This document shows positions 7,781-53,571 of a DNA stretch of 64,000 nucleotides, piece by piece (the first letter of the stretch is position 1; every line of letters starts with the position of its first letter). Made by a program: the position numbers and the translations under genes. This DNA is from an archaeon (lineage in GTDB: Archaea; EX4484-52; WAPT01). Location: contig JAPDKB010000002.1 in the NCBI GenBank assembly GCA_029258795.1, positions 172,192 through 236,191 on the forward strand. Reading direction: 5' to 3'. The notes beneath the pieces were generated by a model that saw nothing but the letters and a program-made list of their open reading frames with translations, made no database searches and was not told where the DNA came from.

Positions 7781-8203
7781 ATGGGGCTTAAGGAGTTCTC
7801 ATCCAAGGTCTGGGTTGGAGCAGTGCTCTTTTCGATCGTCAACGTCTTCATGTACTACAGCATCGGCAAGTTCTGGATCGGAGGGAGCAGCTTCCTGCCA
7901 CTGATCGGCAGTCAGGTACAGAAGTTCCTGTTTCCACTGGTGGTCAATGCAGGAGTGGTGGTTGGGACATTTCTGGCAGCGTTGCTCACGAGGGAGTTCA
8001 TAATAAGGAAGCCAACCTCTGACATAGTGAAGAGATCAATACTCGGTGGCTTCCTTATGGGTATAGGAGTTACATTAGCTCCAGGAACATGCTCCACACC
8101 GTTCGTCACAGGAATGCCAATGCTGGGAGTGAACTCCTTCCTGTCAGTGATCGGTATAGTGATTGGAGCATATATAGGATACAGATGGGTGGGTAGAAAA
8201 TGA
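7781..8203 (+). CDS. YeeE/YedE family sulfur transporter, first half
   Basis: A 140-residue membrane protein with about four helices. The conserved cysteine lies in GVTLAPGTCSTPFVTGMPMLG, the substrate-relay region of TsuA-type thiosulfate permeases. An ATG at 7781 follows GAGGTGAGGATTG. The stop overlaps the next gene's start by 4 nt (ATGA), so the two half-size proteins are translationally coupled and probably assemble into one transporter. Confidence 0.88.
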   Translation: MGLKEFSSKVWVGAVLFSIVNVFMYYSIGKFWIGGSSFLPLIGSQVQKFLFPLVVNAGVVVGTFLAALLTREFIIRKPTSDIVKRSILGGFLMGIGVTLAPGTCSTPFVTGMPMLGVNSFLSVIGIVIGAYIGYRWVGRK

Positions 8204-8724
8204 CGCTGGCACAACCAACTTTGCTATTGGGATTCCTGTTCGGCGTGGTCTTTGGTTTCATAGTGCAGAGAATGAGCTTCTGCGTTTCCACTGACCTGGC
8301 TCAGGCGTTTGCAGGAAACCCCAGGAGAATTCTGACGTGGCTCACGATAATTTTCATAATCACAGGAGCGGGATTCGTTTACCTCGGACCAAAAGCGGTT
8401 GGTCAGCTCAGGGGTTACGGAATCTACAACATAATTTCTGGGATTTTCTTTGGCGTGGGCATCGTACTCAGCGGTGGCTGCGTGCTTGGAACCCTCAGAA
8501 GGATGGGAGAGGGCTTTCTGCACTCATGGGTGGTCTTCGTTTCATGGCTTCCGGGAATGGCACTGGTGGTTTACGTCCTTAACCCGATATTGCAGGGTAC
8601 GTACCACATACCAGAAAAGATGCCGCTGCTTTCGGACGTGCTTCACATCAGCAACTGGGCAGCTTATGCGCTGGTAGCAGTTGTGCTGCTTGTGATGACC
8701 TGCTGGGCCTACAGAAAGAAGTAA
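8200..8724 (+). CDS. YeeE/YedE family sulfur transporter, second half
   Basis: A 174-residue protein with about five membrane helices. It has RMSFCVSTDLAQAF near the start and SGGCVLGTLRRMGEG in the middle; both cysteines sit where TsuA/YeeE proteins hold reactive thiols. Together with the preceding gene it makes the two halves that are one chain in TsuA. With TusA upstream the set predicts uptake of thiosulfate or a related sulfur species and transfer to a cytosolic persulfide carrier. Confidence 0.88.
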   Translation: MTLAQPTLLLGFLFGVVFGFIVQRMSFCVSTDLAQAFAGNPRRILTWLTIIFIITGAGFVYLGPKAVGQLRGYGIYNIISGIFFGVGIVLSGGCVLGTLRRMGEGFLHSWVVFVSWLPGMALVVYVLNPILQGTYHIPEKMPLLSDVLHISNWAAYALVAVVLLVMTCWAYRKK

Positions 8725-8761
8725 CAGCATTGCAGAAAAACAGTCGATTGGCACTTTTCTC

Positions 8762-9679
8762 TCATTTTATTTTTATTTCCATGAAATCCTCCGCAATTTT
8801 TGTGTTCGGAAATATCTCCTGCGCCTCCTTCAGCAGCTTCTCCACCGTGTACTTTCTGTTGTTGTTATCCTGCTGGTACCTCCGGCTTATGTGGGTCAGC
8901 ACAAGCATTTTCACATTCGCCTCTTTCGCAAGCATTGCCGCCTGCCTTGCTGTCATGTGGTAATACGTATGAGCTCTGTTCTCAAATTCGGAGCAGAAAG
9001 TACCATCGCATATCAGCACATCAGCATCCTTTACAGCTTTGACAAGCGATTTTCTGTAGCCAGTATCGCCGGTGTAAGCTATTTTTTTACCCTTCACAAC
9101 CTCCACAACATCTTCCGGCTTTATTCTCCTGCCTTTGAACAGTATCTCCTCTCCCTTTTTCAACTTGCCTATCAGCGGACCCGAAGTTAAGCCAAACTTT
9201 TTCGCTTTTTCCATGTTCGCTTTGATTTTATCCTTTTCCTGAAACACAAAGCCAAGGGAAGGAATGCCGTGGTAGGTTTTGAACGCCTCGATGTAATACC
9301 TGTCAAACTCCACTCTATCCCCTGGCTTGAGGTCTTCAGCTATAACCGCAAAACCCCTCTCAAAATAACCTATGCTCAGCAGCTTTTCAACGAACCCGAC
9401 AGTACCTTCCGGGCCGTAAATATAGAGCGGCTTCTTTCTTCCCTCCATGCTCATGGTCTGTATCAATCCGGGCAGCCCAGCGAAGTGATCAGCATGCCAG
9501 TGCGTGATGAACACGGCTTTTATCCTCATGAACTTGAGGTTCTTTATCATGAGCTGTCTTTGCGTGCCTTCTCCGCAATCAAACAGAAAGCGGTCTTCGT
9601 TGTACTTTATCAGGATGGCAGGTAAACCACGCTCTCTTGTTGGTATGCCGGCGCTCGTCCCAAGAAAATGGATGGTCAT
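8762..9679 (-). CDS. rnz: Ribonuclease Z (tRNA 3' endonuclease)
   Basis: Trims the 3' trailer of pre-tRNAs. This 305-residue metallo-beta-lactamase-fold enzyme has FLGTSAGIPT at the N-terminus, the metal motif HWHADHFAGLPG, AYTGDTGY, and a late HISRRY motif, all typical of RNase Z. The start ATG overlaps the HisS stop by one base (TGATG), so it is translated with HisS. All three tRNAs here already encode CCA. Confidence 0.95.
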   Translation of the reverse strand: MTIHFLGTSAGIPTRERGLPAILIKYNEDRFLFDCGEGTQRQLMIKNLKFMRIKAVFITHWHADHFAGLPGLIQTMSMEGRKKPLYIYGPEGTVGFVEKLLSIGYFERGFAVIAEDLKPGDRVEFDRYYIEAFKTYHGIPSLGFVFQEKDKIKANMEKAKKFGLTSGPLIGKLKKGEEILFKGRRIKPEDVVEVVKGKKIAYTGDTGYRKSLVKAVKDADVLICDGTFCSEFENRAHTYYHMTARQAAMLAKEANVKMLVLTHISRRYQQDNNNRKYTVEKLLKEAQEIFPNTKIAEDFMEIKIK

Positions 9680-23933: not shown

Positions 23934-26900
23934 TTACTCGATCACCATGGGCGACTTATCCTTTAACTCAACAAGCCTGCCGTATAGCTTTCTTAACTTC
24001 TCCAGTTCAAATTTAAGCAAAGCATTCTCCTTTTCCAGAGCCCTCAATCTGGAGGCAAGAACACTCACCGCATCTTCATCCTCTTGCTCCTCTCTCTCCA
24101 CTTTCATAACCTCGGACGCCACACTTCTGAACTTACTTTCCAGATCCCTTTCAATCTTATCCATGATGATCGCGAATCTCCTCTCAACCTCATCTTCCAG
24201 CTTATCCAACCTATCGTTCACATAACTTTCCATCTTGTCAACTTTCAGCTCCTCCTCCTTGAAGTCCTCGAGAGCTTTTGACACCATAGCGTTTACTTCA
24301 TCAATAATTTCATCTCGCATCATTTTCAGGAAGTTGATTTCGCTCTGCATTTTTTGCAGATTTGAAGCTATCTGCTCCATTCTGGAGGAAAAACTATCAA
24401 TAGAGGATTTTATGAGATTGAACCTTTGCTCTACACTCTTTTCCATCATCATTTCCTTTTGTCTCAAATTTTCTATCTCACTCTGTTTTTCCTTTATCGC
24501 TGTCAGCGCATTCTCCATATCATTTACCGCTTTAATCAATTCCTCAATCACGCTCTTTATTTTTGCATCCGTAGACCCGGCAATTTCCTTGGGGAGGTTG
24601 GACATGCGACTTTCCAAGAACGAGATCTTATGTAAAAGCTCGGAATATTTCTTTTCCATGTTATTAATTTTAGCATCAAGTTCGGCTTCATCCTTTTTAA
24701 CTCCACCTTCAGCGAGAGCTCTTTCAAGTGCTGCGAGTTTCTTGTTTATTTCTGTGAGTCCCTTCTCCGCCTCTTCTTTAAACTTCGCAGATTCGTTAAC
24801 CTTCAACACCATCTTCCTCAACTCCTCCTGAAGGCTTGCAATTCTTTTATTTAATTGAGTATGTTCATCTTTATATTCTTTAAGAGACTCAAATTCCCTT
24901 CTCAACATTTGGTTTTCAGCTTGAAGTTTCGTAACGGCATCCTGTAAAGCTTTTATGGCATCTACATTTTCATCCAGCCTATCCACACTATCTTTCAGAT
25001 TGTCTAACTCCCTCACCTTAGATTTCATCTCGGAGAGCTCGTTAAGAATCGTTTCAACTTCATTCCTTACCTTCCCTATCTCCATTTCCATCAATTTCTG
25101 AGCACCACTCCCCGCATCCTCAATCTTGCTTTCCAGCATCTTTACAGCAACTCTTACCTCATCGATCTCCTCCTCAGCATCCTCTAACCTCTCCTTAAGC
25201 GATTTCAGCACTTTTTCAACATCACCCCTCTTTTCCTTTTCCAGAGTCTCAATTTTCATGGAGATGGAGTCCACATCCCTCCTTATACCTCTGACCTCGG
25301 TGTCCAGCAGATTAACATTCTTCAACATTTCTCCGTGTTCTTTCAGCTTTTCCCTGAGTTTTTCAATTTCCTCCTTGTCCTTTTTCTTTTCGATGTTCTT
25401 TTCGACATTCTCCATCCTTGTTTTTATTTCCTCAATTTTACGAGATAACAATTCAACATCTCTTTTAATAGGGTCAATTTCATCTCCAACTTCACTTTTT
25501 ATTTGCTCAAGTTCTTTCACATCCTTCTTTATGTTTTCCACAGCTTTCTCGACAACCTCGATCCGTTTCTTCATGCTTTCCATTCCAGCTGACAATTCCA
25601 CAACATCATTTTCAATTTCTTCAACAAGTGTGGAGGCTCGGGTTGATGTCTTTTCCACATCCTTGAACCTCTTTAGAACCTGTTTGTAGGATTTCACCAC
25701 ATGATTGGCATCCTGCTCAAGAATCTTCAGCTCGTCAAGCGCTCTTTCTAGTTCCTCAATTTTTCTTCTGAGCACTTCAAAATCACGGTTTTCCAATTTA
25801 TTAACTCTTCGAAAAACATTGTTTAATCCCGATTCAACACTTTCAACGGTTGAATGTATCTCATCAATATCTTTCTGAATTTTTGAAATTTTTTCTATGT
25901 TCTTTTTCATTTTATTAAGATTTTTCTCAACCTTTTCTGCTTTATCTTCGAAATTTTCACCCTTTTTCTCGTATTCCTCAAGTATTTTATTGAATTGTTC
26001 AACTTTTTTGGAAGCCTCGCGAATCTCTTTCCTGAGCGTTTCATAAGCATCCCAGAAATCATTCATCTTCTTCATCGCATCATTAAATTCCTTTTCAATA
26101 TGCTTCATTCTTTTTTCCATCTTCCCGATACTCGAGATATAATTCTCCAGTTCATCTATGCTGTGCTCAACTTCCTCGATACGTGATTTTAACCTCTCGT
26201 CCACCTTTTCCAGTTCCTCTTTACTTGCGTACTTTTCCTTTCTCAGCTCATCACCCAAGCCCTTGAGCGCGTCTTCAACAGCCATTAATCCAGCATCAAC
26301 GCGCGTGATCTCCCTTTCCAGTTCCTTGACTTTCCTGAAAACATCGTGTTCTTTACCGTGTACGCTTTCCTTCGATTGTTTTTCAATCTCTTCTATCCTC
26401 TTTTCAAGAACCTCTAGTTTGGGCTTCAGAGAAGATAAAGCGGCATCAACACGTTTTTGGAGTGCTTTCAGCTCTTCTTCCCCATGCTTTTCTTCCTTTT
26501 CATGCACGCTTTGCGAGATCTTACTTATATCCTCTTTAATCTTGAGAAAGTCCTTTTCCAGACTTTCCAGCTTACTCTCGAGTTTCTTTATTGTCTCTTT
26601 CTCTTCCCATTCTTCCTTTTTCGCCCCGGTAGGAGGTGATGTTTTTAATTTATTCAATTCCTGCTTGACATTCTCGAATTCCTTCCATATTCTCTTTTCC
26701 AGTTCCTCCAACCCTTTCGTATCTATTTGTTGTGGAGCAGCACTCCCACCTTTCAACTTACCTTCCAATAACTCTACCTTTAAAAGCAATTCCTTTTTTG
26801 TCTTCTCCATCTCGGACCTGAGAGCTTCAAGCGATGCCGATAAGTTTGCTAATTTTTCTTGATCAACGGATTTTGTTGCAGGTTGTGGTGCTGGGGTGGT

Positions 26901-27971
26901 AGCGCCGCTTGGTGGTTGGGTGGTTTGAGGTGATTGTGGGGATGGGAGTGTTTTCCTCACCATCTCGATCTCGGATTGTAATGAAGCTATCTTGGAAGTT
27001 AGCTCAGTCATCCTGGAACTTAGGCGAGTATACATATTTTTGAGCTCTTCAATTTGTCTTTGAGGCACCGCTGAAACTGCGGACGGTGGTTGTACAGTAG
27101 GTGTGGTGCTTGAAGCTGCTTTCGGAATCGAAGATGAAATCTTTGCAATATCACTAACCTTTCTTTCCAGCGCCTCCAGCCGTGACCTCAGCGCTGACAC
27201 CTCAACCTGAAGTTTAGTATCAACAGGCGCCGCAGGGGAAGAGGGGGTAACGGGCTTACCCGGAATCACTGTACCGGGTCTCAGTTTCAGAGCATTGACC
27301 TCCCTTTCCATGGCAGCAAGCCTTGCCTGCAGGGAGGTAAGCTGTGTTTTTATTGAGGTAATGAGAGCATCGGATGGTGCTGATGTTGGGGCAGTGGGTG
27401 ATGCTGCCGATGGAACCGCAGTTTTGTCAGCAGGTTTGGATGAGAGCTTTTGAATCTCCTGTTGAAATGCATCAATCCTTTTCTTTAGCTCTTCCAGGTC
27501 CTTAATTCGCACAGCTTCCTTTTCAACCTTTTCAAGCCTGCTTTTCAATTCTTCAACATTCTCGGTGAGTTTCTGGACTTCCTCAACATCAAGCTTTTCC
27601 AGAACATCCAGCTTTTTCAGGTTCTCCAGTGCAGAGAGTATGGCCTCAACGCTGTCCTGCATTTCCTTTATCTCATCCCGAAAAATCTCGATTTCTTCCG
27701 AGCCCTTCAACACGTCAAGCTTGAGCACGAGTTCATTGTTTTCCACATCATCCAACCGCTTCTCAATATCATCCAGCCGCTTGAGAAGTGTCTCAACTTT
27801 ACCCTTTTCGCTCTTTTGAGAAGCCTCTTTCTTTATATTCTCAAGCTCCTCATATAAGTTCTCCAGTTTCTGGTTAACATCCACACCGAGAAGCTCCATT
27901 TTGTTCTTGAGCTCTTCCAGTGAGTTTTCAACTTTTTTTATTCTTTTAGTGAGAACAGAATCATCACCCAT
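23934..27971 (-). CDS. Giant coiled-coil protein (1,345 residues)
   Basis: No signal peptide, membrane helix or globular domain is visible. The N-terminal ~160 residues, and most of the chain from about 380 to the end, are continuous heptad-type Lys/Glu/Leu sequence. Between them lie short coiled coils joined by four Pro/Ser/Thr/Ala-rich linkers (for example SAASPTAPTSAPSD and QSPQTTQPPSGATTPAPQP). The likely start is ATG at 27971 after GGTGGGATGG. Convergent with the pilin-like cluster. A cytoplasmic scaffold or filament is the natural inference; SMC or Rad50 is ruled out because no ATP-binding ends are present. Confidence 0.85.
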   Translation of the reverse strand: MGDDSVLTKRIKKVENSLEELKNKMELLGVDVNQKLENLYEELENIKKEASQKSEKGKVETLLKRLDDIEKRLDDVENNELVLKLDVLKGSEEIEIFRDEIKEMQDSVEAILSALENLKKLDVLEKLDVEEVQKLTENVEELKSRLEKVEKEAVRIKDLEELKKRIDAFQQEIQKLSSKPADKTAVPSAASPTAPTSAPSDALITSIKTQLTSLQARLAAMEREVNALKLRPGTVIPGKPVTPSSPAAPVDTKLQVEVSALRSRLEALERKVSDIAKISSSIPKAASSTTPTVQPPSAVSAVPQRQIEELKNMYTRLSSRMTELTSKIASLQSEIEMVRKTLPSPQSPQTTQPPSGATTPAPQPATKSVDQEKLANLSASLEALRSEMEKTKKELLLKVELLEGKLKGGSAAPQQIDTKGLEELEKRIWKEFENVKQELNKLKTSPPTGAKKEEWEEKETIKKLESKLESLEKDFLKIKEDISKISQSVHEKEEKHGEEELKALQKRVDAALSSLKPKLEVLEKRIEEIEKQSKESVHGKEHDVFRKVKELEREITRVDAGLMAVEDALKGLGDELRKEKYASKEELEKVDERLKSRIEEVEHSIDELENYISSIGKMEKRMKHIEKEFNDAMKKMNDFWDAYETLRKEIREASKKVEQFNKILEEYEKKGENFEDKAEKVEKNLNKMKKNIEKISKIQKDIDEIHSTVESVESGLNNVFRRVNKLENRDFEVLRRKIEELERALDELKILEQDANHVVKSYKQVLKRFKDVEKTSTRASTLVEEIENDVVELSAGMESMKKRIEVVEKAVENIKKDVKELEQIKSEVGDEIDPIKRDVELLSRKIEEIKTRMENVEKNIEKKKDKEEIEKLREKLKEHGEMLKNVNLLDTEVRGIRRDVDSISMKIETLEKEKRGDVEKVLKSLKERLEDAEEEIDEVRVAVKMLESKIEDAGSGAQKLMEMEIGKVRNEVETILNELSEMKSKVRELDNLKDSVDRLDENVDAIKALQDAVTKLQAENQMLRREFESLKEYKDEHTQLNKRIASLQEELRKMVLKVNESAKFKEEAEKGLTEINKKLAALERALAEGGVKKDEAELDAKINNMEKKYSELLHKISFLESRMSNLPKEIAGSTDAKIKSVIEELIKAVNDMENALTAIKEKQSEIENLRQKEMMMEKSVEQRFNLIKSSIDSFSSRMEQIASNLQKMQSEINFLKMMRDEIIDEVNAMVSKALEDFKEEELKVDKMESYVNDRLDKLEDEVERRFAIIMDKIERDLESKFRSVASEVMKVEREEQEDEDAVSVLASRLRALEKENALLKFELEKLRKLYGRLVELKDKSPMVIE

Positions 27972-28080
27972 AACCATCCCACCCATTAAAGCTTCAATTA
28001 AAAGTTTGAGAAAACCTGTATATAAAATTATACACATAGCGGATTAAATGGGGTGCGCCTGCTTTTTTCGCGTTTTCGTT

Positions 28081-42203: not shown

Positions 42204-43358
42204 TTACTTATTTGAGCTCAGAAGCTCCAGCATAGAAACTACATCTTTGAGAGCTTTCATGATCCTGGAGATTTCATCTTTTAATTCCTCATTTTCCTTT
42301 TTCAATATTTCCAGCTCTTCTTTCAACATCTCAACCTCAGGGAGCGGCTTTTTCTTGGTTTTTTCACCAGTATTTTCTACTTTTTTCAGTTTGCGCTCCA
42401 TTTCCTTCAACTTGTTTTTCAGGATGTTGACATCCTTCGTTGTGGCTTCAATTTTAACCTCAACACCTTCATCCAATGCAAGGGCTTTATTTACAGTTTT
42501 TGTTAAATCATCCTCTTTCTTTTCAAGGTCTTTCATACGTGAAGACATTTTATTCATCAAACTTTTAAGATGAGTTAGCTCTTTCTCTAGATTCTCCAGT
42601 TGTTTGGTGTCGTTAAGACCGCCGCTTTTAATCAGTTTATTAATCCCCTTTTTATCGACAATCTGAGCATGTTTCAGCATTACCTCGCTTCTTTCAATAA
42701 GTTCATCCATAATTTTAAGTTTGTTGTTTATATTTTCCAACAAATTATCAATTTCCTCTTTTTTAACGACCGATTTCAGATGCACTGTGTGTTTTTCCAC
42801 CACCTCTTTCAAACTTTCCAGTTCCGCGCTTATTTTCTTGATTTCCCGTTTCATCTCCAGAAATTCCCTGTATTTTTTCTCAATTTCTTCCAGCACAGCA
42901 ACGCTCTTCTCTGCGTTTATTTTCGTGGACGCTTCCAGTTTTTTGAGCACGCCGATATCGTCTTTCATCTCCTCATACAAACTCTTGACGACCTCGAGTC
43001 CTTTAAACTCCATCAATGTCTTCCTTATGTCTTTTATCTCGTCCACAACCCTCTTTATTATCTTTTCATTTTTCTCTATCATTTCTTTCAGAATATCCAT
43101 TTTATCCTCGACTTTACTTATTCTTGTGAGAATTTTCTCGGGCTCGACCTCCTTTGCTATGGCTTCCATTCTGTCGTACACCGCTTGCATCTCCGCCAAG
43201 TTTTTTTCATCTTCCAGCAGCATGCCACGAAGCTCCCCTATCTCTTCCCTTATCTCCGCGATCATTTCAGAAGTGGCTTTCCTCATCTCGTTCAGAGCTT
43301 CAATCTTGGCTTCCAGCTCTTCAACTTTGGCTTCCATTCCAAGTTCTTTTTCAGACAT
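42204..43358 (-). CDS. Coiled-coil protein coupled to the adhesin-ATPase gene
   Basis: 384 residues, almost entirely Lys/Glu-rich coiled coil from about 5 to the end, with short breaks near 230-245 and 330. No signal peptide or membrane segment, so cytoplasmic. The ATG lies inside the end of the 3,090-codon gene (8-nt overlap) and the preceding GTAGAGGAG doubles as its ribosome-binding site, so translation is coupled. This predicts a stable stoichiometric partner of the ATPase part, whose own tail is also helical. Confidence 0.85.
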   Translation of the reverse strand: MSEKELGMEAKVEELEAKIEALNEMRKATSEMIAEIREEIGELRGMLLEDEKNLAEMQAVYDRMEAIAKEVEPEKILTRISKVEDKMDILKEMIEKNEKIIKRVVDEIKDIRKTLMEFKGLEVVKSLYEEMKDDIGVLKKLEASTKINAEKSVAVLEEIEKKYREFLEMKREIKKISAELESLKEVVEKHTVHLKSVVKKEEIDNLLENINNKLKIMDELIERSEVMLKHAQIVDKKGINKLIKSGGLNDTKQLENLEKELTHLKSLMNKMSSRMKDLEKKEDDLTKTVNKALALDEGVEVKIEATTKDVNILKNKLKEMERKLKKVENTGEKTKKKPLPEVEMLKEELEILKKENEELKDEISRIMKALKDVVSMLELLSSNK

Positions 43359-46300
43359 GCTCCTCTACCTTGAACAAGCCAGCTTTCAACCTCTCCATCC
43401 TCTCCTTAATCCTCCTCAGCTCCTTAACATTCTTTTCAGCTGATGCCATCCTTATCTTCGGCTCAAGCGTTTCGAGCTCCATCTCAGCATCAAAGACATC
43501 CACGCCCTTGGCTTTCAAATCCACAACCTTGTCCTTCAGCTCTTCATACAGCTTTGAAAGGTAAATTGCTAAATCCTCAGCTGTCTCCACCCTTGCCTTT
43601 CCCACAAAGCTCTCAAGCTCCTCTTTGCTTATCTTTTCCTTTTTCAGAGCTTTTAAATCTATGCCATGAATTCTTGCTTTTTCAAAAGCGTTCTTTTCAA
43701 GAGAACTCAAATACAGCTCGACCATCTCAAATCTGCCCTGAGCCAGCTTGGAATCAGCAAGCTTTAATTCTGTCTCAAGCTCAAAAACATCTATACCCTT
43801 AGCTTTCAGAAGCTTCACGATCATCCTTATCCTCTCAAGCTTCTTGTCATAAGCCACATATTTGGCCAGCTCCTCATCGCTCAGCCTTGTAACCTGATGG
43901 AGTATCGGTCTAAACTCAACAAAGTATGGCCTCCCTCTATTGTACTCGCTGAAAACAAGCATTCCTGTTCCAACTCCAGCTTTAACAACGCTTGCCATGT
44001 ATATGTCGCCATACTTCATTCTTACCCTTTCCAGATCGTTCTCATACCTTGTTCTGAACTGTATTTCCATTCCAATGTTCGCTCTTATCTCTCCAACGAA
44101 ATCGCTCAGAACTTGGGAAATCAACATGAGACCTATTCCCCATTTCCTGAATTCCCTTGTTGCTTTCTCTATGGCAAGGAAACCCTTGCCGGTTCCTCCG
44201 AATTTTGGAAGCAATCTGTGCACCTCATCAAAGATAAGAGCAGCTTTCAGCTCATGACTTTCCTCCATGTTGGAGTTGAATATTGAGCTTATGAAGTTTA
44301 CAACGAAGTCCTCAATTTCCTTGTGGCTGAGCTTGTTCAGCACGAAGATAGTTATCCTTCCTTTTTGAGAGAGAAGCTCCTTTACATCGACCTTTTCGTA
44401 AGCGTCTTCAACCACCTTTATTTTTCCCGCAAAACCCCTCGCATCCTCCTTCTTCATTCCGAATTCCTTGTATTTCTTGAGCATGAAATCTTCCTTGCAT
44501 TTCCTTAAGAAGCCCGTCCACTGGGCCGTTGGATCAAAGACTATCACGCTCTTTCCTTTGAGCAGGAGTTCTTCAGCCATCACCATGGCTGAGATGGTTT
44601 TGCCCGAGCCGGTTGCTCCTGCTATCATAACATGCGTGGATAGATGGTTTGGATGGATGAATGCCCTTATTGCTTTGCCGGCTATGTTTCCTATGAAGAG
44701 GGAGGAGGTTGTGGGTTTTGGGAGGTGGTGAACATCTATGGGTGTGTCCATCTTTTTCTTAGCGAGTTTTCTTCTCCTCTGCCAGTAGAAGTAGGTAGCT
44801 CCAGCTATCACGCCACTCATCTGCATGAGTATCGCGAGCTCTTTAACTTTCAGGCCGAGAGGAGTTTTCTTTTCAAGGAAAGGAACACCAACCTCTACGT
44901 ACTGCATTGCCGTAGCCTGCAACGGTCTCGATGCAGAGATGTAACTTGCTGTTGCTTTAACCATGTACTTCTTTTTCTCCAAGTTTTCCGGAATCTTCAG
45001 AGTGAGTATTTTTGTTAAGCTGGTTTCCACAGCCATCGTTTCAGTCTTTGCCGCAACAGTTTCCAGCGTGTCCGGATCCACAAGCTCTATCGTTACGTTT
45101 GCATCCACTCTTTTCGTTTTTCCTAAATTGAAGAGCTCAACCTGAACTTTCAGCGTGTCTCCGGGATCAACAGCGTCCTGCAGGAGGTTTATTTTCATGT
45201 CCATCAGTTCTTCCGGCTTCTGGAGAACTTTGATTGTTATCGGTACGGTTGTGCTCTGGTTCTCAGCGGAGATTTTCAGCACACCCGTGTAGGTGCGTGT
45301 TTCAGCATCCTCCGGTATATCGAATTCAACTATGAAGTATCCTTCTCTTTTTGCATCGACTCTAATTAACGGACTGTATAGCTTTGCCAAGGGAATAACA
45401 TCACCATATATCGTGGCCACGAATTCCGCTTGTTTGTCCAGAAGGTTGAACACGTAAATATTCTTCATGGTTTTCTCGCCCTGATAAAGCGTGAGGTCTA
45501 TGGATTGTGTCTGCACAACGAAATCCTTCTTTCCAAGTTTTTCCAGAAGCTTTTCGATCAGCTCCTCCTCATCTAGCTCGTTGACAACAGTAGTTCCACC
45601 CCCAGAACTCACAACCTTTGGCTGCGGAGCCGGACAGTCAGCGGGACAATTATACGGACTCTCACCGTATTCACAAACGCCGTTACCGCATATAGCTGAA
45701 ATCTCTGATTCGGGCTCAGCCAACACAAGCAGCGGGTCACTTTCGTTCAGATCGATCCGCACCTCTGCTCTTGCATAGTTTATGGTTGGCGTGATCATGG
45801 TGAAGTTGCTCTCGCAGATACCGCTCTCCACAGAATAATTGGTGCACTTGTACACAGCAAGATGAGATAAATCTGAGACTTGATCGAGGTATGGAAGAAC
45901 GTTGAATACTATAGTGATGTTTTTGAGAGGGATGTCTGTATTGTACATTATTGCCCTGTATCTTGCCTTCACTCCAGTTAGTGGTACGAGCTTCGGATTC
46001 AGTTCCGTTATCTCGAGAATGCTGTCGTTTGTCAAGTTCGCATCATTCACCATTATTTCTTCATAGGGGGAGATGGCTTCAATATCGTAAAGTCCCTGCT
46101 TGACATTGACAACCTTGGTGTTGGTAATGGTGAAATTGTAAAAGACAAAATTGGCATTACTTTTCTTCATCACTACCTGTGTCTGGTTTGGTGATATTAT
46201 GGCGAGGGTTATGAGTGGTGTATCCCTCACCCAGACAGAAACACTGGCGTTGTTGCCGGTTGAGTCGAAAGCTGTGTAAGCTATCTGATAATCTCCGCTC

Positions 46301-49300
46301 TCATTCAAATAGTAATTTCCCAGTTTCCAAACGTCTTTGGTGGAGTTGTAGGAGAGTGTGAGTTTCTCCTCTGCTCCAGAAGGATAAGTTATGGTTGCGT
46401 CGACTCCACTGACTCCTACATTATCTTTAACTTTCACCTCCGCGCTCAGAATTCCATCTTTCACGGTTTCATTGGTTGAAGTTATGGATGGGGGGGTTAT
46501 GTCCTTGTAATGGATTGAGTTTACGGCTGTTGCTCTAACAGTAAATCCGTAAACATTATACGTGGCAACCACGGTCAAATTGTGGAATTTTCCATCCTCA
46601 ACCTCTGGAAGAACACATTCCATGTTCCAGTAGCCTACGGAATAAGAAACAGTGGAAGTGCATTCCTCATTATCAACATAAACATGGAATTCAGAATCAG
46701 AGCTTATTGGATTGTTGGCAAGGGTGAATGAAACGTTCACTTTTATGATTTCGTTTGCGAGCATGTTGGTGTAGGGGTCGGTTTGTGAGGGAGAGATTAC
46801 GTTTAATTCAGCCTCATAAACATCCATCACAACTTTAACTTTCATGATCTGATTGTAGTTCACTTCCTGGATGGTGATGTTTCCTTCATAATGGTTTGCA
46901 GAGGGTATTTTGTTCCATGAGAGGAGAAGGGAGTAGTTGTTCTGCTTAGCCAAGCTTGTTGATGTTTCGTTTATGGAGAGCACGTCGGTTATGTTGCCCT
47001 CGAGAGAAAAGTAGAATTTGAGCTGCACATTACCCAGATTCTTTATGAGCAGTGCTCTATTTCCACTCATGTTTGCAACGGCCGGGATGTTGAGCTGCGT
47101 TGCATTTATCTCCCACGAACTGTCTTCTGGAATGCTTACCTCCATGGTTTTTTCGTCACACATTTCGGGTGTGCAAGCACGCAAAGCAGGTATGTACGTG
47201 CCCGGAGCAAAGCCAGCTGGAAGCTCTATCCTTACTGTCACGTTTCCTGACGCTCCAGGAGAGAGAGATGTTATAGTCGAGGGAACGAAATGCACGTATG
47301 GGCACAGGCCTGGCTGGTATGCACAAGCGAATGTTACGTTTTCCGCGTTGTCGTTGCCCTGGGATTCCACAAGGATCCATCCTAGCATGGTGGCATTGTG
47401 CCGGGCGGTCACAGACTGAGACATGCTCGTTATGTTTACTATCCTGGTTGGCGTAACATTGATTAAGACAGGGTCAGAGGAGACCTTGTCATAAAACGAC
47501 GGGTTGGGGTTGAGCCATTCAACATACGGCTGGATAGCATATGTCGAGGGCGGCGTGCCATTTGTTATATATAGAGAGAGCAAGCAGTCCATGCTTTCAT
47601 TTGGAGCAATCTGAGCACGAGCACATTTCCCAACACTCCACGATGTCCCCGGTGGGGGGCTTGCTGTTACGTTGATATTGTAAGCGTTGACGTTACCCTC
47701 ATTGGTAACATTCAGTAATACGGATATCGACCTCCCCTCGAGGAGGCTGACATTGTCAACCCTGACATTGGTTGTTGCCGGGGTTATGGAGAGCCTTGTC
47801 CTCTCAAGAGCCTCAAAAGAAAAGCTTTCAGAGCTGCATTTCGAGCCAGAATCGCACGCCACGAGCTCTCCAGTATACACCCCCCCGACATCTGGAGTAT
47901 AGACACAAGAGTGGTAGCCGTCTGGAATAGAGGGCGATTGCTCGCAAACAATCTCGGTCACCGTCCCGTTCGGATGGGTAACCTTCATTTTTATCAAGGA
48001 GAGCATGTCCTGGTCGTCATCAAAACGGGCTGTTACGACCTGCTGGGTTCCTATCTCTATCATCTCCTTATAGGCGAGGTCCGAAATGTACGGGGGCATG
48101 TCCAGGTATGTCATATAGAGAGGAGCACTCCTCTCTTGTGGCAATGCCGTGCTGTTCCGGAAGGTTATGTTGGTCGCGTAAGTGGTCGCTAGATAGCTGC
48201 CCTCCTGGAAAAAGTCAATCCTCTTCTCTTCCTGTTCTTCTAGGTAGACATGGGAAGGATTATAGACTGTGCCATTATAATACTTGTCTATGATCATTAT
48301 TTTCGGATCCTGTCTTGTTGGATTGGCATAGCCTGCTATGTCCTCGTAGGTTATCGTGAAGTTGAGCGGCACGTTTCCCGTGTTCCTGATGATTATGTAG
48401 CCTGCAGAGCCGTTGGTGTTGAGAGGGAAAGTAAGGTTCAAGAACGGAGCTTGGGTGCTGTTGGGATAGAACACTTTGATGGAGTAGGTTGTGTTGACAG
48501 GAACCTGAATGTTTACGGGCAGTATTTTTATTCTTTCATCAAACTTTCCGAGGTTTGCACTTATGTTTATCTCTCCTGTGTAGTTTCCTGGTGGAAATCC
48601 AGCAGGAAGGGTTATGGTTATGCATGTTGTTTTGCTCTCTTCCGGATAGATCACGCTGAAGTAGGAGGGAGAGATGCTCACGGTTTGGGATGGGAGTGTT
48701 TTTGCGGTGTAGTTTATCCAGACATCATAGAGTTCAGCGTTGCCGGTATTGTTTATGAGTATTACGTATGTTCTTGATGTTCCGTGTTCCATGGTGTCGT
48801 TTATGGCGGTGATGTTGGGAGTTATCTCGGGATTTCCGACAACGTGTACATTCTGCTGGTTGGAGTATACAAAGGATTCGGAATTCTCATTATTATTCCA
48901 TATCAACTTGTAAACCTGCTTGTAAGTTGCTGGAGAGGTTCCCGCGGGTATGGTCATGTAAAATGTTATGTTTATTGCTGTTTCGGGTGGAACATCCGGG
49001 ATGAGTGTTGTGTTTGTTACATTGAACGATCCAGAGTACCTTTCAACTCTTATATTCCTCATAGTTGCTCTGCCAGTATTGTTTATCGTCATGTTGAAAC
49101 TCACAATCTTGTCTTGTGTTGTAGAGACATTGTAGACCACAATATCGTAAGCTTTCAGGGTGGCTGTTGTGGTTTTCTCGTCAAAAAAGTATTCGAACGC
49201 ATCATCGTGTGGGAAGTAAAGAGCGGTCTCATTTTCAACGTGCACAACAACAGTAAGATTTCCCCCCCTCTGCTCACACCCGTAGGACGGGTCTCCAAAG

Positions 49301-52300
49301 GAGAACGTTAATGTGCAGTTTCCAAGGCCAAAGCAGTTTTTGGAAACACTCCCTATCTTCACTGTGAAGTTTCCGTGCAATGGCTGGCCATTTGTTGCGT
49401 TAATATAGTTTCCAGCCGTTATTGTGTAGATTGAGCAGTCGTCATCCGAAACAAAATCAGGAACTATGACATAGTCTTTGGTGAAATTGGCCGGCCACCT
49501 GACTTTCAAAATTGTGGAGTTTTTCCCATCAATTCCGTTGGGGTCTGTTAGATTAACCCTGACAACGTAGTCTCCTGCTTCCAGAGGAGCGTGGAACGCA
49601 TACTTATAGTGACCGGAAGTATTCGTGAAGACCAAAGCTTTTTTCACTTCTGCGGACTTGAAGTTTGCCGGATCGGCAAGCTTGTAGACCCTCACATAAT
49701 CAATATACAACCTGTCTGCCCTGTTGTCCGTCCACTGTCCTTGCGAAAAGAACAGTTTTTTGGGATTGGAATGATAGTTCGGAAAGTTAACCGAAAACGA
49801 GTTTACCTCGTCATAATACGTAACTGTCGGTGCAAAATAAAGCCTTTCAGTCCTCCACTCACCCGGGACCACAGTCCATGGAGAATAGCCCATATCCACT
49901 GCATTTCCACTATCATCCACTTCGTATATCACATGCCTATAGTCCGAAGTATCTGTGTAGAAAGATGTGAGCACGGCCAACCCACTGTACACTGCTGGAT
50001 TTGCAACTACTGGGCTCATCATGTCCGCATTTTCAACAAGAGCAAATTTAGTGTATTCGGGGGTGGAATCCAAAATTTTCCATCTGTATTCCACAATTAT
50101 TCCCGTGGTGAACGTTTTTTTGCTCAATATCCTGTCGGAATCAGCAATCCCGAGCTTCCCGCCAAGCGAGAGATATCCGTTCTCCACCGTAAGGTTCAGA
50201 CCGGAATAACTGTCCCATTTGGTTGTGTTAAGGACAGAGCAATCGAACCCATCAAAAAACTCGAACACTCTCTCTGGATCGTGGTAGCCGCTCCATGTGG
50301 CAAGCGGATCGCCATAAGCGATGTTGATACCAGTAGAGCCGCTGCTCACATTGATCCAGATCACTGCGGTTTGGTTTGAGTAGTCCCACTCTTCTATCCA
50401 GAAATAAAGCTGGTTTCCGTTCTGGTCGAAAACTCGGATGTCTTCTCCTGTGCTTTTGACCCTATTCCAGAAGTTGTTGTTCGTGGCGGATATTTCTACA
50501 TCCCCCATTACATTGTAAACGGTCCAGTTTGTTCCGTTAATGACTATCCTGTAGTTTGCACTCTCTGATAGAGCGTTGGTTAGTGAGAAACCCATTTGTT
50601 CGGGCCAGGTTTCAGTGTTAGGGTTAATGATCTGATCATCTATCCAGATGAAAGCGGGGTTGTTGGAGACAGGACTGTTATCCTCATATATTGCTCTTCC
50701 GTAAACCAACACACTCTGGTTTGGAAGTGTAAAGGTAACGTTTTCGTAGGTGGTGATAGATATATTTCTCACACGATAAGTATAATTGGTATTTAGAACA
50801 CTACCTTTTATCCCATTGGCTGATACACCAGAAACATTAGCCAAGAAACTATAATGGCCGGTAATTGAAGGAGCAGTGCCAACAGTCTCGTTGGTTTGCC
50901 ATGTTCCATCACTGATATGCACAAGAGTGTAGTTCTTCCCGTCCACCTCTAACTGGAAGCTTCCGGATGTGACATCAAAATAATTCGTGCCGTTGAACTC
51001 TCTTATCTCCACGGTAAGGTTGTAGCCTTCTCCCGGATTAAGGATATTGTCAAACTCTCCGTGCTCGTCCAGCAAGTTGAACCGGTCAAAAGTGAGATTT
51101 CTAACATCAAAAATGATGGATTTCTTGGCATTTCTCGCGTCCCAGACCGCGGTGATGTTGTGCACGCCCAAACTTGTGGGAGCTGTGAACGTGTAGGAGT
51201 AAACCAGAGCTTCATCGGACACTGTTTTACCAATAACAACACCATCAAGCAGGATGGTCACGTTCTGGTTTGGTGCTGCTAACACGTCAGAACAAACATA
51301 ATAAGAAGACAAGGTCTGGTTGGTCAAATAACCACAATATCTCGTTTCACCAGATATCGTCAGGGAATCCCCAGGATTCACCACCAGATCAATATCATTC
51401 AGAAAACCCGATATAGTAGTAGCCACAAACACCGAACCATTATCACCATGTTCGTATCCTGTTCCTCCTTTAGCTTCTATACTCCCATCAAACAGGAACT
51501 GACTGGCATAAATGGCTATTCTTCCTCCTGATCCTCCTCCGCCATCGTAATCAATATTTCCTCCATCGCCACCATCAGCATGTATCGTTCCATTTCCTTC
51601 CATCTTATTTACCACGATAAGAATAGAACCTCCCGATCCTCCTCCCGCTCCTTGCTTAGGAGAATCACCTTCCGTTCCACCATTCCCTCCGTTTGCAGAT
51701 AAGGTTCCATTTATGATGAAAATGTTCGTGACGTTCAGGAATATCATCCCCCCTCCATATCCTCCTTTAGCACCTTGAGCATTACCTCCTCCTGATCCAA
51801 AATCAGTTGGCCATGAATAAGAACCGTATGGAGAGCCGACAGAGTCCCATCCATAACCATCTCCTCCATATCCTCCGTATCCAGCTCCTCCACCACCCCT
51901 CGAGGTATCACTTCCGTAACTCGCTCCAGCACCTGGACCCTGCTCATTAGGATAACCCTTCCCACTGGCATCAATAACCCCTCCCGCATAAACTGTTAAA
52001 TTCTGTGCTGTTATGTTGACATTCCCCAAAATTTTCCCTCCGCTTTCGATTATGATCTCCTTGAAGTTTAAGATGGCTATTTCAAGCGGGTTTGTGGTCA
52101 GAACTCCGGCACTCTGGATTACAAGAGTTCCAGAACCAGATATCACTGTGTTGTTCGGAATGGTGTAAGTACTGTTGACATAACACGTGGTGGAATAATT
52201 TCCGGAGTCGCAGATGTGTACAATCACTGTTGTTGTGTTTTCCCCATAATTTCCGCTTGTATCTGTTATGTTAACTTTAATTGTATGAGTTCCCACTGTT

Positions 52301-52623
52301 AGCGAGCTTATTGTATAATTATAGTTACCATTCGAATCTGTGGTTGCTGTCCCACTCAATGAACTATCCACATAAACATAGACATCTGTGTTGTTTACTC
52401 CAGTTCCATTAGAATATAATGCCTGCCCGGAAATTGTTACAGTTTCTTCCGGTTTGTAAGCCGGTTTATCTAGGTTTATAGTAATGTTAATGGACGAGCC
52501 CTCCGTCTGGGCTGTGGCTGGAATGGAAGCATGGATGAAAATTGCAAGAAGCGAGAAAATGGTGAGCAGTGCCAAGTATTTCGTGCTTGCTCTTATCATT
52601 GCCTTTGGGCTATACTCTCTCAT
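43351..52623 (-). CDS. Giant cell-surface protein fused through one membrane helix to a HerA/FtsK-type ATPase
   Basis: 3,090 residues. Domain order: signal peptide (about 1-39, TIFSLLAIFIHASIPATAQ); Ig-like domain (to ~135); glycine-rich beta-helix-like repeats (about 200-390); DUF2341-like (about 690-790, RVFDQNGNQLYFWIEEWDYS) followed by a LamG-like sandwich; many NEW3/CARDB-like domains with dozens of NxT/S sequons; a CGNGVCEYGESPYNCPADC motif near 2320; one membrane helix (about 2593-2612) followed by QRRRKLAKKK; then cytoplasmic ATPase with Walker A GATGSGKT near 2670, Walker B ALIFDEVHRLLP near 2795, GIGLMLISQ, and a helical tail. AGGAGGT precedes the ATG. The frame is open throughout. 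Confidence 0.9.
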   Translation of the reverse strand: MREYSPKAMIRASTKYLALLTIFSLLAIFIHASIPATAQTEGSSINITINLDKPAYKPEETVTISGQALYSNGTGVNNTDVYVYVDSSLSGTATTDSNGNYNYTISSLTVGTHTIKVNITDTSGNYGENTTTVIVHICDSGNYSTTCYVNSTYTIPNNTVISGSGTLVIQSAGVLTTNPLEIAILNFKEIIIESGGKILGNVNITAQNLTVYAGGVIDASGKGYPNEQGPGAGASYGSDTSRGGGGAGYGGYGGDGYGWDSVGSPYGSYSWPTDFGSGGGNAQGAKGGYGGGMIFLNVTNIFIINGTLSANGGNGGTEGDSPKQGAGGGSGGSILIVVNKMEGNGTIHADGGDGGNIDYDGGGGSGGRIAIYASQFLFDGSIEAKGGTGYEHGDNGSVFVATTISGFLNDIDLVVNPGDSLTISGETRYCGYLTNQTLSSYYVCSDVLAAPNQNVTILLDGVVIGKTVSDEALVYSYTFTAPTSLGVHNITAVWDARNAKKSIIFDVRNLTFDRFNLLDEHGEFDNILNPGEGYNLTVEIREFNGTNYFDVTSGSFQLEVDGKNYTLVHISDGTWQTNETVGTAPSITGHYSFLANVSGVSANGIKGSVLNTNYTYRVRNISITTYENVTFTLPNQSVLVYGRAIYEDNSPVSNNPAFIWIDDQIINPNTETWPEQMGFSLTNALSESANYRIVINGTNWTVYNVMGDVEISATNNNFWNRVKSTGEDIRVFDQNGNQLYFWIEEWDYSNQTAVIWINVSSGSTGINIAYGDPLATWSGYHDPERVFEFFDGFDCSVLNTTKWDSYSGLNLTVENGYLSLGGKLGIADSDRILSKKTFTTGIIVEYRWKILDSTPEYTKFALVENADMMSPVVANPAVYSGLAVLTSFYTDTSDYRHVIYEVDDSGNAVDMGYSPWTVVPGEWRTERLYFAPTVTYYDEVNSFSVNFPNYHSNPKKLFFSQGQWTDNRADRLYIDYVRVYKLADPANFKSAEVKKALVFTNTSGHYKYAFHAPLEAGDYVVRVNLTDPNGIDGKNSTILKVRWPANFTKDYVIVPDFVSDDDCSIYTITAGNYINATNGQPLHGNFTVKIGSVSKNCFGLGNCTLTFSFGDPSYGCEQRGGNLTVVVHVENETALYFPHDDAFEYFFDEKTTTATLKAYDIVVYNVSTTQDKIVSFNMTINNTGRATMRNIRVERYSGSFNVTNTTLIPDVPPETAINITFYMTIPAGTSPATYKQVYKLIWNNNENSESFVYSNQQNVHVVGNPEITPNITAINDTMEHGTSRTYVILINNTGNAELYDVWINYTAKTLPSQTVSISPSYFSVIYPEESKTTCITITLPAGFPPGNYTGEINISANLGKFDERIKILPVNIQVPVNTTYSIKVFYPNSTQAPFLNLTFPLNTNGSAGYIIIRNTGNVPLNFTITYEDIAGYANPTRQDPKIMIIDKYYNGTVYNPSHVYLEEQEEKRIDFFQEGSYLATTYATNITFRNSTALPQERSAPLYMTYLDMPPYISDLAYKEMIEIGTQQVVTARFDDDQDMLSLIKMKVTHPNGTVTEIVCEQSPSIPDGYHSCVYTPDVGGVYTGELVACDSGSKCSSESFSFEALERTRLSITPATTNVRVDNVSLLEGRSISVLLNVTNEGNVNAYNINVTASPPPGTSWSVGKCARAQIAPNESMDCLLSLYITNGTPPSTYAIQPYVEWLNPNPSFYDKVSSDPVLINVTPTRIVNITSMSQSVTARHNATMLGWILVESQGNDNAENVTFACAYQPGLCPYVHFVPSTITSLSPGASGNVTVRIELPAGFAPGTYIPALRACTPEMCDEKTMEVSIPEDSSWEINATQLNIPAVANMSGNRALLIKNLGNVQLKFYFSLEGNITDVLSINETSTSLAKQNNYSLLLSWNKIPSANHYEGNITIQEVNYNQIMKVKVVMDVYEAELNVISPSQTDPYTNMLANEIIKVNVSFTLANNPISSDSEFHVYVDNEECTSTVSYSVGYWNMECVLPEVEDGKFHNLTVVATYNVYGFTVRATAVNSIHYKDITPPSITSTNETVKDGILSAEVKVKDNVGVSGVDATITYPSGAEEKLTLSYNSTKDVWKLGNYYLNESGDYQIAYTAFDSTGNNASVSVWVRDTPLITLAIISPNQTQVVMKKSNANFVFYNFTITNTKVVNVKQGLYDIEAISPYEEIMVNDANLTNDSILEITELNPKLVPLTGVKARYRAIMYNTDIPLKNITIVFNVLPYLDQVSDLSHLAVYKCTNYSVESGICESNFTMITPTINYARAEVRIDLNESDPLLVLAEPESEISAICGNGVCEYGESPYNCPADCPAPQPKVVSSGGGTTVVNELDEEELIEKLLEKLGKKDFVVQTQSIDLTLYQGEKTMKNIYVFNLLDKQAEFVATIYGDVIPLAKLYSPLIRVDAKREGYFIVEFDIPEDAETRTYTGVLKISAENQSTTVPITIKVLQKPEELMDMKINLLQDAVDPGDTLKVQVELFNLGKTKRVDANVTIELVDPDTLETVAAKTETMAVETSLTKILTLKIPENLEKKKYMVKATASYISASRPLQATAMQYVEVGVPFLEKKTPLGLKVKELAILMQMSGVIAGATYFYWQRRRKLAKKKMDTPIDVHHLPKPTTSSLFIGNIAGKAIRAFIHPNHLSTHVMIAGATGSGKTISAMVMAEELLLKGKSVIVFDPTAQWTGFLRKCKEDFMLKKYKEFGMKKEDARGFAGKIKVVEDAYEKVDVKELLSQKGRITIFVLNKLSHKEIEDFVVNFISSIFNSNMEESHELKAALIFDEVHRLLPKFGGTGKGFLAIEKATREFRKWGIGLMLISQVLSDFVGEIRANIGMEIQFRTRYENDLERVRMKYGDIYMASVVKAGVGTGMLVFSEYNRGRPYFVEFRPILHQVTRLSDEELAKYVAYDKKLERIRMIVKLLKAKGIDVFELETELKLADSKLAQGRFEMVELYLSSLEKNAFEKARIHGIDLKALKKEKISKEELESFVGKARVETAEDLAIYLSKLYEELKDKVVDLKAKGVDVFDAEMELETLEPKIRMASAEKNVKELRRIKERMERLKAGLFKVEEHV

Positions 52624-52682
52624 ACATACCTCCTGAAAAAAATCATGAGTTGTTGATATGTTAAGATATTTTCCGAAGAAAA

Positions 52683-52729: not shown

Positions 52730-52936
52730 GGGCAAAATCCTTAAGAACGGAATCGCTTCGTCAGCTTTTTACACAGGATTCGATAAGCAAAAAACTTCTT
52801 GCCCCTGTATGTATTCAAAACCACAGCAACCACCCTTTATCCCAGCGGGAGTTTGAGATTCTGTACGGAAATTCGGTTGGTGAACAAAAACAATATAAGC
52901 GGGGTTTGTTCAGAAAAATTTTTCGAGGTGATCGCC

Positions 52937-53571
52937 ATGAAAACCAGACCCCGCTGTGAATGTTGTTACTCACAAAACATTATAAAGTTTGGCACAAGAA
53001 AGACCAAAAGAAGAGGAAAGATTCAGAGATATAAATGCGAGGACTGCAATAAAACCTTCACAATAAATGACGGATTCAAGCACAACATTGTGACACATAT
53101 ACTATATTCTGTGGAAAGAACACTAAAGCATTGCTGCTTTGCACATGGATGAGCTTTCCATAAAGATGAAGAAAAGCTATTATTGTCTCTTCGATTCTTT
53201 TGACAAGCAAAGCAGATTTGCTGTGCTTTATTTATCAAGCTCAAGAAATGCTGATTCTGCTTTTAGCCTTGTCAAGCTCAGCCCTTTAGCAAATGAGATA
53301 ATAACCGATGGATTGGAGAGTTATCATAAAGCTCTGCTGAAATATTTTTCATCCAGCCCGAGAGAATATTTCAGAAAGCATAAGGTTTGTAAAACTGAGC
53401 TTAAATGGCTTAACAATCCTATTGAAAGATTTCAGTCAACCTTGTGTAGATTTCTTTACTTCAGCTGAGCTTAATGGTGAGAACATATTGTTTATTCCTT
53501 TGCTTTGGATTTATTATAACTTCGTGAGAGTCCATTCAGCTATTGGATCAACTCCTGCTGAGAGAGCTTAG
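52937..53571 (+). pseudogene. Degraded DDE transposase (IS6-like), with internal deletion and frameshift
   Basis: The start (after GAGGTGATC) encodes a zinc-ribbon CCYSQNIIKFG...RYKCEDCNKTF typical of archaeal IS6-like transposases. The HTH region is missing: the frame ends at 53152. A second frame from about 53139 resumes with the catalytic domain (HMDELSIKMK, then ITDGLESYHKALL, then NNPIERFQS), holding the D, D and E positions. A third frame from about 53460 gives the C-terminal YNFVRVHSAIGSTPAERA. At least two lesions, so inactive. No convincing terminal inverted repeats were found. Confidence 0.8.

What the first reader, a model, noticed from the sequence alone, without database searches (positions are those of the whole stretch)
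43351..52623. Single polypeptide joining a ~2,550-residue surface adhesin to a cytoplasmic HerA/FtsK-type ATPase
One uninterrupted 3,090-codon frame carries a signal peptide, glycine-rich and Ig/NEW3-like ectodomains, one membrane helix with a basic stop-transfer, and then a full P-loop NTPase (GATGSGKT, IFDEVHRLLP, GIGLMLISQ) of the HerA/VirB4/FtsK type with a helical tail. Such ATPases normally form soluble or membrane-linked hexameric DNA or protein pumps; a huge extracellular receptor on the same chain would tie outside contact to a motor inside. Cell-contact sensing, DNA or protein transfer, or envelope anchoring are possible. This may be an undescribed system.
Basis: partly seen in the sequence, partly recalled or inferred. 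Interest (0 to 1): 0.88.

Follow-up and report, generated by a model that had tools for sequence, protein, structure and literature searches.

The report
Giant archaeal adhesin with internal motor
A tiny, probably host-dependent archaeon makes a 3,090-residue surface protein whose outside part looks like a long adhesive fibre and whose inside part is a HerA/VirB4-type motor; such proteins are already known from related archaea ("SPEARE" proteins), but here they turn out to be widespread and paired with a dedicated, co-evolving coiled-coil partner that the two papers read here do not describe.

Summary
ORF 43351-52623(-) is one 3,090-aa frame: signal peptide, about 2,550-residue Ig/NEW3/DUF2341 ectodomain, one membrane helix, HerA/VirB4-class ATPase, helical tail. 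It is not an assembly artefact: two same-genus assemblies and dozens of other archaeal genomes carry the same fusion. The architecture is not undescribed. It belongs to the DPANN giant surface proteins called SPEARE (Hamm 2019) and re-read as membrane-anchored VirB4/TraG-like ATPases (PMC10266531). I matched it directly to three published members (BNXNv_0298, SVXNc_0300, SG9 SPEARE-3). What I did not find in those papers: (1) the next gene (42204-43358), overlapping by 8 nt, encodes a coiled-coil protein with a nearly gapless 210-residue core; the core occurs in 54 of 57 genomes that carry the ATPase and co-diverges with it (tree-distance r=0.93; swapping in-genome paralogues breaks it). (2) The family has at least three paralogous motor-partner clades; the window lies in a different clade from the nanohaloarchaeal proteins. 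(3) The published VirB4 N-terminal domain, and VirB6, were not detected, so "part of a type IV secretion system" is weakly based. Most likely a cell-contact adhesin anchored to a hexameric translocase; cargo and direction unknown.

The parts
43351..52623 (-). Giant adhesin-ATPase gene, 3,090 aa (SPEARE-type family)
52628..52634 (-). AGGAGGT Shine-Dalgarno 4 nt before the ATG; TATA-like AAATATATAG at about 52693-52684 (inference)
   Evidence: read directly
52507..52623 (-). Signal peptide, residues about 1-39 (hydrophobic core YLALLTIFSLLAIFI; no SignalP run)
   Evidence: hydropathy
44848..52506 (-). Ectodomain, residues about 40-2592: Ig, Gly-rich region 135-420, DUF2341 726-805, NEW3 array, 28 Cys, 96 N-X-S/T sequons
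50209..50448 (-). DUF2341 domain, residues 726-805, followed by a beta-rich region to about 1010 of unproven fold
44848..47526 (-). Membrane-proximal base of the ectodomain, residues 1700-2592; homologous and at the same place before the membrane helix in nearly all relatives, published giants included
44758..44847 (-). Transmembrane helix, residues 2593-2622, with the basic RRRKLAKKK at its cytoplasmic end
   Evidence: model; relatives
43879..44757 (-). HerA/VirB4-class ATPase, residues 2623-2915 (Walker A GATGSGKT 2669-2676; Walker B/catalytic D2799 E2800; invariant REFRKWG)
43354..43878 (-). Cytoplasmic helical tail, residues 2916-3090 (long-tail type, clade A)
42204..43358 (-). Partner gene: 384-aa coiled-coil protein without signal peptide or membrane helix; its ATG overlaps the giant's end by 8 nt (ATGTCTGA)
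42714..43343 (-). Conserved, nearly gapless 210-residue core of the partner (residues 6-215; invariant R44, P73)

Best explanation
The window gene is a member of the DPANN giant membrane-anchored surface proteins (SPEARE family). SHOWN by sequence or model: a single chain with an exported, sequon-rich adhesin-type ectodomain, one membrane helix and a cytoplasmic ATPase of the HerA/VirB4 class with its catalytic motifs conserved; a coupled downstream gene for a coiled-coil protein whose core is inherited with, and diverges with, its own motor across archaeal lineages. INFERRED: the ATPase forms a hexamer at the membrane like its relatives, so up to six adhesin fibres ring one pore; the fibres bind a host or neighbour cell; the co-evolved coiled-coil protein docks on the cytoplasmic face as scaffold, gate or adaptor; ATP hydrolysis then moves a polymer across the membrane at the contact site. 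All 31 aligned members match the archaeal DNA-import ATPase CedD (below its cut-off) and HerA models, so DNA uptake is my first guess for the cargo (about 0.35), effector export second (about 0.2), no transported cargo third. The cleavage of ectodomain from cytoplasmic part inferred from gel fractions in a relative (PMC6642349) may apply here too.
For: Membership: window residues 2541-2976 align at 39.6% identity, E 5e-95, with the C-terminus of an ORF of exactly 8,880 aa in a 1,046,959-bp genome, both values published for Ca. Nanohalovita BNXNv; the family profile finds the 9,409-aa SVXNc_0300 in a 948,351-bp genome (E 1e-184), a 3,315-aa ORF equal in length to SG9 SPEARE-3 (E 8e-151) and an 8,573-aa ORF near SPEARE-1. 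Ectodomain base conserved as well. ATPase. Topology. Partner: homologous across lineages, near-gapless core with two invariant residues, found in G006, which was left out of the alignment that built the model; in 54 of 57 genomes with the ATPase among 297, and within 6 kb downstream on the same strand at 60 of 81 ATPase matches, some of the rest lying near contig ends; mirror-tree r 0.934, 0 of 2,000 permutations, dropping to 0.60-0.73 when paralogues inside one genome are swapped. Ectodomain diverges faster (57-58% identity) than the ATPase (85%) between sister species, as expected of a contact surface. CedD as a membrane-anchored DNA-import ATPase.
Against: No experiment here or in the papers read shows ATPase activity, hexamers, cargo or binding. 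CedD/HerA matches cover mainly the P-loop and lie far below the NCBIfam equivalog cut-offs. No channel protein was identified. The HerA fold also serves non-transport roles (DNA repair, phage defence). Mini versions of 600-770 aa exist that can hardly be long-range adhesins, so adhesion may be an add-on. Co-divergence of adjacent genes can partly reflect joint inheritance rather than contact.
Confidence: 0.62

Rival explanations
1. It is part of a type IV secretion system that injects effectors into the host (the 2023 proposal): the ATPase is a VirB4/TraG and the fibre a secretion 'straw'.
For: Published proposal; VirB4 fold match Z 23.2 and TrwB 19.8; weak TraC, TraD and VirB4 model matches; a second ATPase of the same family adjacent in BNXNv, SVXNc and SG9.
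Against: The VirB4 N-terminal domain PF03135 claimed for BNXNv_0297 was not found (E<=0.1), nor in six genomes incl. BNXNv at E<=1, while the control Caulobacter matched; VirB6/TrbL PF04610 absent in the same six. The second ATPase reads as signal peptide + short ectodomain + membrane helix + same ATPase, a miniature of the giant.
Confidence: 0.2
2. The ATPase is an anchor, sensor or turnover motor rather than a pump: hexamerisation clusters fibres and binding outside is signalled through ATP state to the coiled-coil partner, or the motor extracts and renews fibres.
For: Coiled-coil partner without enzymatic domain, strict pairing, ectodomain length varying from very short to about 11,700 residues on a constant motor.
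Against: Invariant Walker and arginine-rich motifs and HerA/VirB4/Ced kinship suggest a translocase.
Confidence: 0.25
3. Assembly join or chance long ORF.
For: None beyond unusual length.
Against: Same fusion in independent assemblies and in single-contig genomes of published size.
Confidence: 0.01

Closest known systems
SPEARE / giant surface proteins of Nanohaloarchaeota (SVXNc_0300, BNXNv_0298, SG9 SPEARE-1 and -3)
   Same: Signal peptide, huge Ig-type ectodomain, single membrane helix near the C-terminus, same ATPase by profile, conserved membrane-proximal base
   Different: 3,090 aa instead of 8,000-9,400; other clade (long helical tail); NEW3/DUF2341-rich ectodomain; no tandem second ATPase gene in this genome; partner gene directly adjacent
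CedB/CedD archaeal DNA-import ATPases
   Same: Membrane-anchored HerA/VirB4-class ATPase; CedD is among the most consistent NCBIfam matches of the family (31 of 31 members)
   Different: No giant ectodomain; far below the equivalog cut-off; Ced partners not found or not tested
HerA helicase/translocase
   Same: ATPase fold, Z 26.0 over 250 residues at 2.6 A
   Different: Membrane helix and ectodomain in front of the ATPase; the genome has separate, distant HerA-like matches on contig C3
VirB4 / VirD4(TrwB) of type IV secretion systems
   Same: Fold and motifs, Z 23.2 and 19.8
   Different: No VirB4 N-domain; no VirB6 detected

Membership tests
SPEARE / DPANN giant membrane-anchored surface proteins | Homologous cytoplasmic ATPase region (the most conserved part) | tested here: met
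   39.6% identity, E 5e-95 to BNXNv_0298; profile E 1e-184 SVXNc_0300, 8e-151 SG9 3,315-aa ORF
SPEARE / DPANN giant membrane-anchored surface proteins | Most of the chain extracytoplasmic, signal peptide, one membrane helix toward the C-terminus | tested here: met
   Hydropathy, model helix 2593-2622, sequon and Cys partition; no SignalP/TMHMM available
SPEARE / DPANN giant membrane-anchored surface proteins | Multiple adhesion-type domains | tested here: met
   Ig-like, NEW3 (four stretches) and DUF2341
SPEARE / DPANN giant membrane-anchored surface proteins | At least one laminin-G domain (Hamm 2019) | tested here: inconclusive
   No LamG match; beta-rich region after DUF2341 modelled at pLDDT 44 only
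SPEARE / DPANN giant membrane-anchored surface proteins | C-terminal coiled-coil/helical tip (2023 paper) | tested here: met
   Helical tail 2916-3090, pLDDT mostly above 75
Type IV secretion VirB4 | VirB4 N-terminal domain PF03135 | tested here: not met
   Absent from the window genome and five relatives at E<=1 with a working control; absent from BNXNv_0297 at E<=0.1
Type IV secretion VirB4 | Co-encoded VirB6/TrbL channel | tested here: not met
   PF04610 absent in six genomes; sequence profiles could miss divergent channels
HerA helicase | HerA-type P-loop ATPase fold | tested here: met
   DUF87 in 31 of 31 members; 4d2i Z 26.0
HerA helicase | Soluble protein with N-terminal HAS barrel, partner of NurA | tested here: not met
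   Membrane helix directly precedes the ATPase in the model; NurA not searched
Ced DNA import | Full-length match to the CedD or CedB equivalog | tested here: not met
   CedD 46 bits against a cut-off of 600 for the window domain
Ced DNA import | CedA-type channel in the genome | not tested
   No search made

The most novel reading that the evidence does not exclude
The membrane-anchored motor and its coiled-coil partner are a dedicated two-protein contact machine, present as at least three paralogous pairs in DPANN archaea, that moves macromolecules (perhaps DNA inward) across the membrane without type IV secretion components.
Probability: 0.4. Interest if true: 0.78.

Novelty: new member of a known kind. 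Interest (0 to 1): 0.55.

Why it matters
How DPANN archaea exchange material with their hosts is an open question. This protein family is a leading candidate, and the survey gives it a defined minimal unit (motor + 210-residue coiled-coil core), a wide distribution (57 of 297 archaeal genomes searched), and weakens the main sequence argument for calling it a type IV secretion system. The soluble partner and ATPase domain are small enough to express and test, unlike the giant ectodomain.

Tried and rejected
Assembly artefact: rejected. Type III restriction-enzyme reading of the cytoplasmic domain: ResIII matches are weaker than DUF87 and HerA_C and the fold is HerA. Partner as archaellum FlaC: only 20 bits, below cut-off, not shared by other members. 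Partner against PDB: generic coiled coils only. A third conserved operon gene: 176-208-aa genes in some loci are homologous only within one genus. Laminin-G test by structure: model too poor, so no fold search made. SPEARE-named literature beyond the two key papers: one mention of small SPEARE-like genes. Collection scan of genome contigs with a single sequence returned only the two genus orthologues.

Full report
OBSERVATION. The frame 43351-52623(-) is open over 3,090 codons with a clear ribosome-binding site. Pfam finds an N-terminal Ig-type domain (below cut-off), DUF2341, several NEW3 domains and, at 2643-2740, DUF87/HerA. An AlphaFold2 model of residues 2541-3090 built on 31 natural sequences (pLDDT 88) shows a strand-rich membrane-proximal end, one 30-residue helix (2593-2622), a P-loop ATPase and a long helical tail. 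Its best structural matches are HerA (4d2i, Z 26.0, 250 residues, 2.6 A), VirB4 (Z 23.2), TrwB (19.8) and FtsK (18.2). N-X-S/T sequons partition perfectly: 96 outside (36 expected by shuffling), none inside; most relatives tested show the same enrichment, G046 being an exception. The signal peptide and helix rest on hydropathy and the model, not on dedicated predictors.

NOT AN ARTEFACT. Two same-genus assemblies, deposited as 'DPANN group archaeon', carry the same fusion, cut only by contig ends. In the 34 genomes held for the window's phylum, 23 carry the ATPase, and 7 of 7 that are at least 90% complete and at most 5% contaminated. Across 297 archaeal genomes, 57 do. Open frames that hold the ATPase reach 12,145 codons.

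WHAT IT IS. The literature library holds two key descriptions. Hamm et al. 2019 (PMC6642349) named giant 'SPEARE' proteins of Nanohaloarchaeota and noted similar cytoplasmic parts in other DPANN lineages. A 2023 paper (PMC10266531) corrected the cytoplasmic domain to a VirB4/TraG-like ATPase behind a membrane helix. I tested membership directly. All share the window's ATPase with E from 1e-95 to 1e-184, and the membrane-proximal ectodomain too. The window gene is therefore a member of that family. One published criterion, a laminin-G domain, stayed inconclusive.

WHAT IS NEW. First, the partner. The gene after the giant overlaps it by 8 nt and encodes a 384-aa coiled-coil protein. Genes in the same place in other lineages encode proteins that vary from 303 to over 1,100 aa but share a nearly gapless 210-residue core with two invariant residues. 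The core model is found in 61 of 297 genomes, 54 of them among the 57 with the ATPase. In BNXNv, SVXNc and SG9 it follows the second, smaller ATPase gene. No Pfam family is specific to it. Trees of motor and partner agree (distance r 0.934); exchanging partners between paralogous pairs within G028, G015 or G004 lowers r to 0.60-0.73, so pairing follows the motor and not just the species. Neither paper mentions this gene in the passages searched.

Second, the family contains at least three motor-partner clades in the trees; several genomes carry two or three. The window is in the long-tail clade, away from the nanohaloarchaeal protein BNXNv_0298.

Third, the type IV secretion argument. The 2023 paper based it in part on a VirB4 N-terminal domain (PF03135) in BNXNv_0297. 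I could not reproduce this: hmmscan finds DUF87 and HerA_C but not PF03135 in that 628-aa protein, and none of six genomes including BNXNv encodes PF03135 at E<=1, while the control Caulobacter matched. VirB6/TrbL is also undetected. The 628-aa protein looks like a miniature of the giant: signal peptide, short ectodomain, membrane helix, same ATPase. A more sensitive comparison may have led to the published claim, so this is a failed reproduction at sequence-profile level, not a disproof.

MECHANISM. Established: architecture, topology signals, conserved catalytic motifs, partner co-inheritance. Inferred: hexamer, host contact, translocation. The family's most consistent curated matches are CedD and HerA (31 of 31 members each); CedD is a membrane-anchored archaeal ATPase essential for DNA import. 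I therefore favour a contact-site translocase, with DNA uptake as the first cargo guess, over effector secretion or a pure anchor or sensor, but the differences in support are small. Faster divergence of the ectodomain (57-58% identity against 85% for the ATPase between sister species) fits a surface facing a variable partner.

VERDICT.

Noticed in passing
window 52799-53468 (+): Two adjacent short ORFs just upstream of the giant gene; the second matches a DDE_Tnp_IS240 transposase domain, so probably a broken insertion sequence.
   Followed up: partly
window 23934-28037 (-): 1,367-aa protein that is almost wholly coiled coil, with generic SMC/Rad50-like matches; not matched by the partner-core model.
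   Followed up: no
L035:14416-16299 (-): BNXNv_0297, published as a VirB4 with PF03135, lacks a detectable PF03135 and looks like a miniature of the giant protein.
   Followed up: yes
L113:5374-7209 (-); L109:7650-9287 (+); L110:3559-5151 (-): Partner proteins in these genomes begin with a Cys-containing, zinc-ribbon-like segment (for example CIICGKDLKDEKGSVCDSC) before the conserved core.
   Followed up: no
L043 and L044 (G006 giant, 10,910 aa): Ectodomain built of about 500-residue units, with Ig, mid-region and DUF2341 domains similar to single copies in the window protein.
   Followed up: partly
L069/L070, L047, L046, L058, L050: In clade C loci a third gene downstream encodes a surface protein (about 1,970 aa where complete) with ectodomain similarity to the giants.
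   Followed up: no
L110:5186-15133 (-): The 3,315-aa SG9 ORF has its membrane helix and ATPase at the C-terminus here, whereas the 2019 paper describes the 3,315-aa protein as reversed.
   Followed up: no
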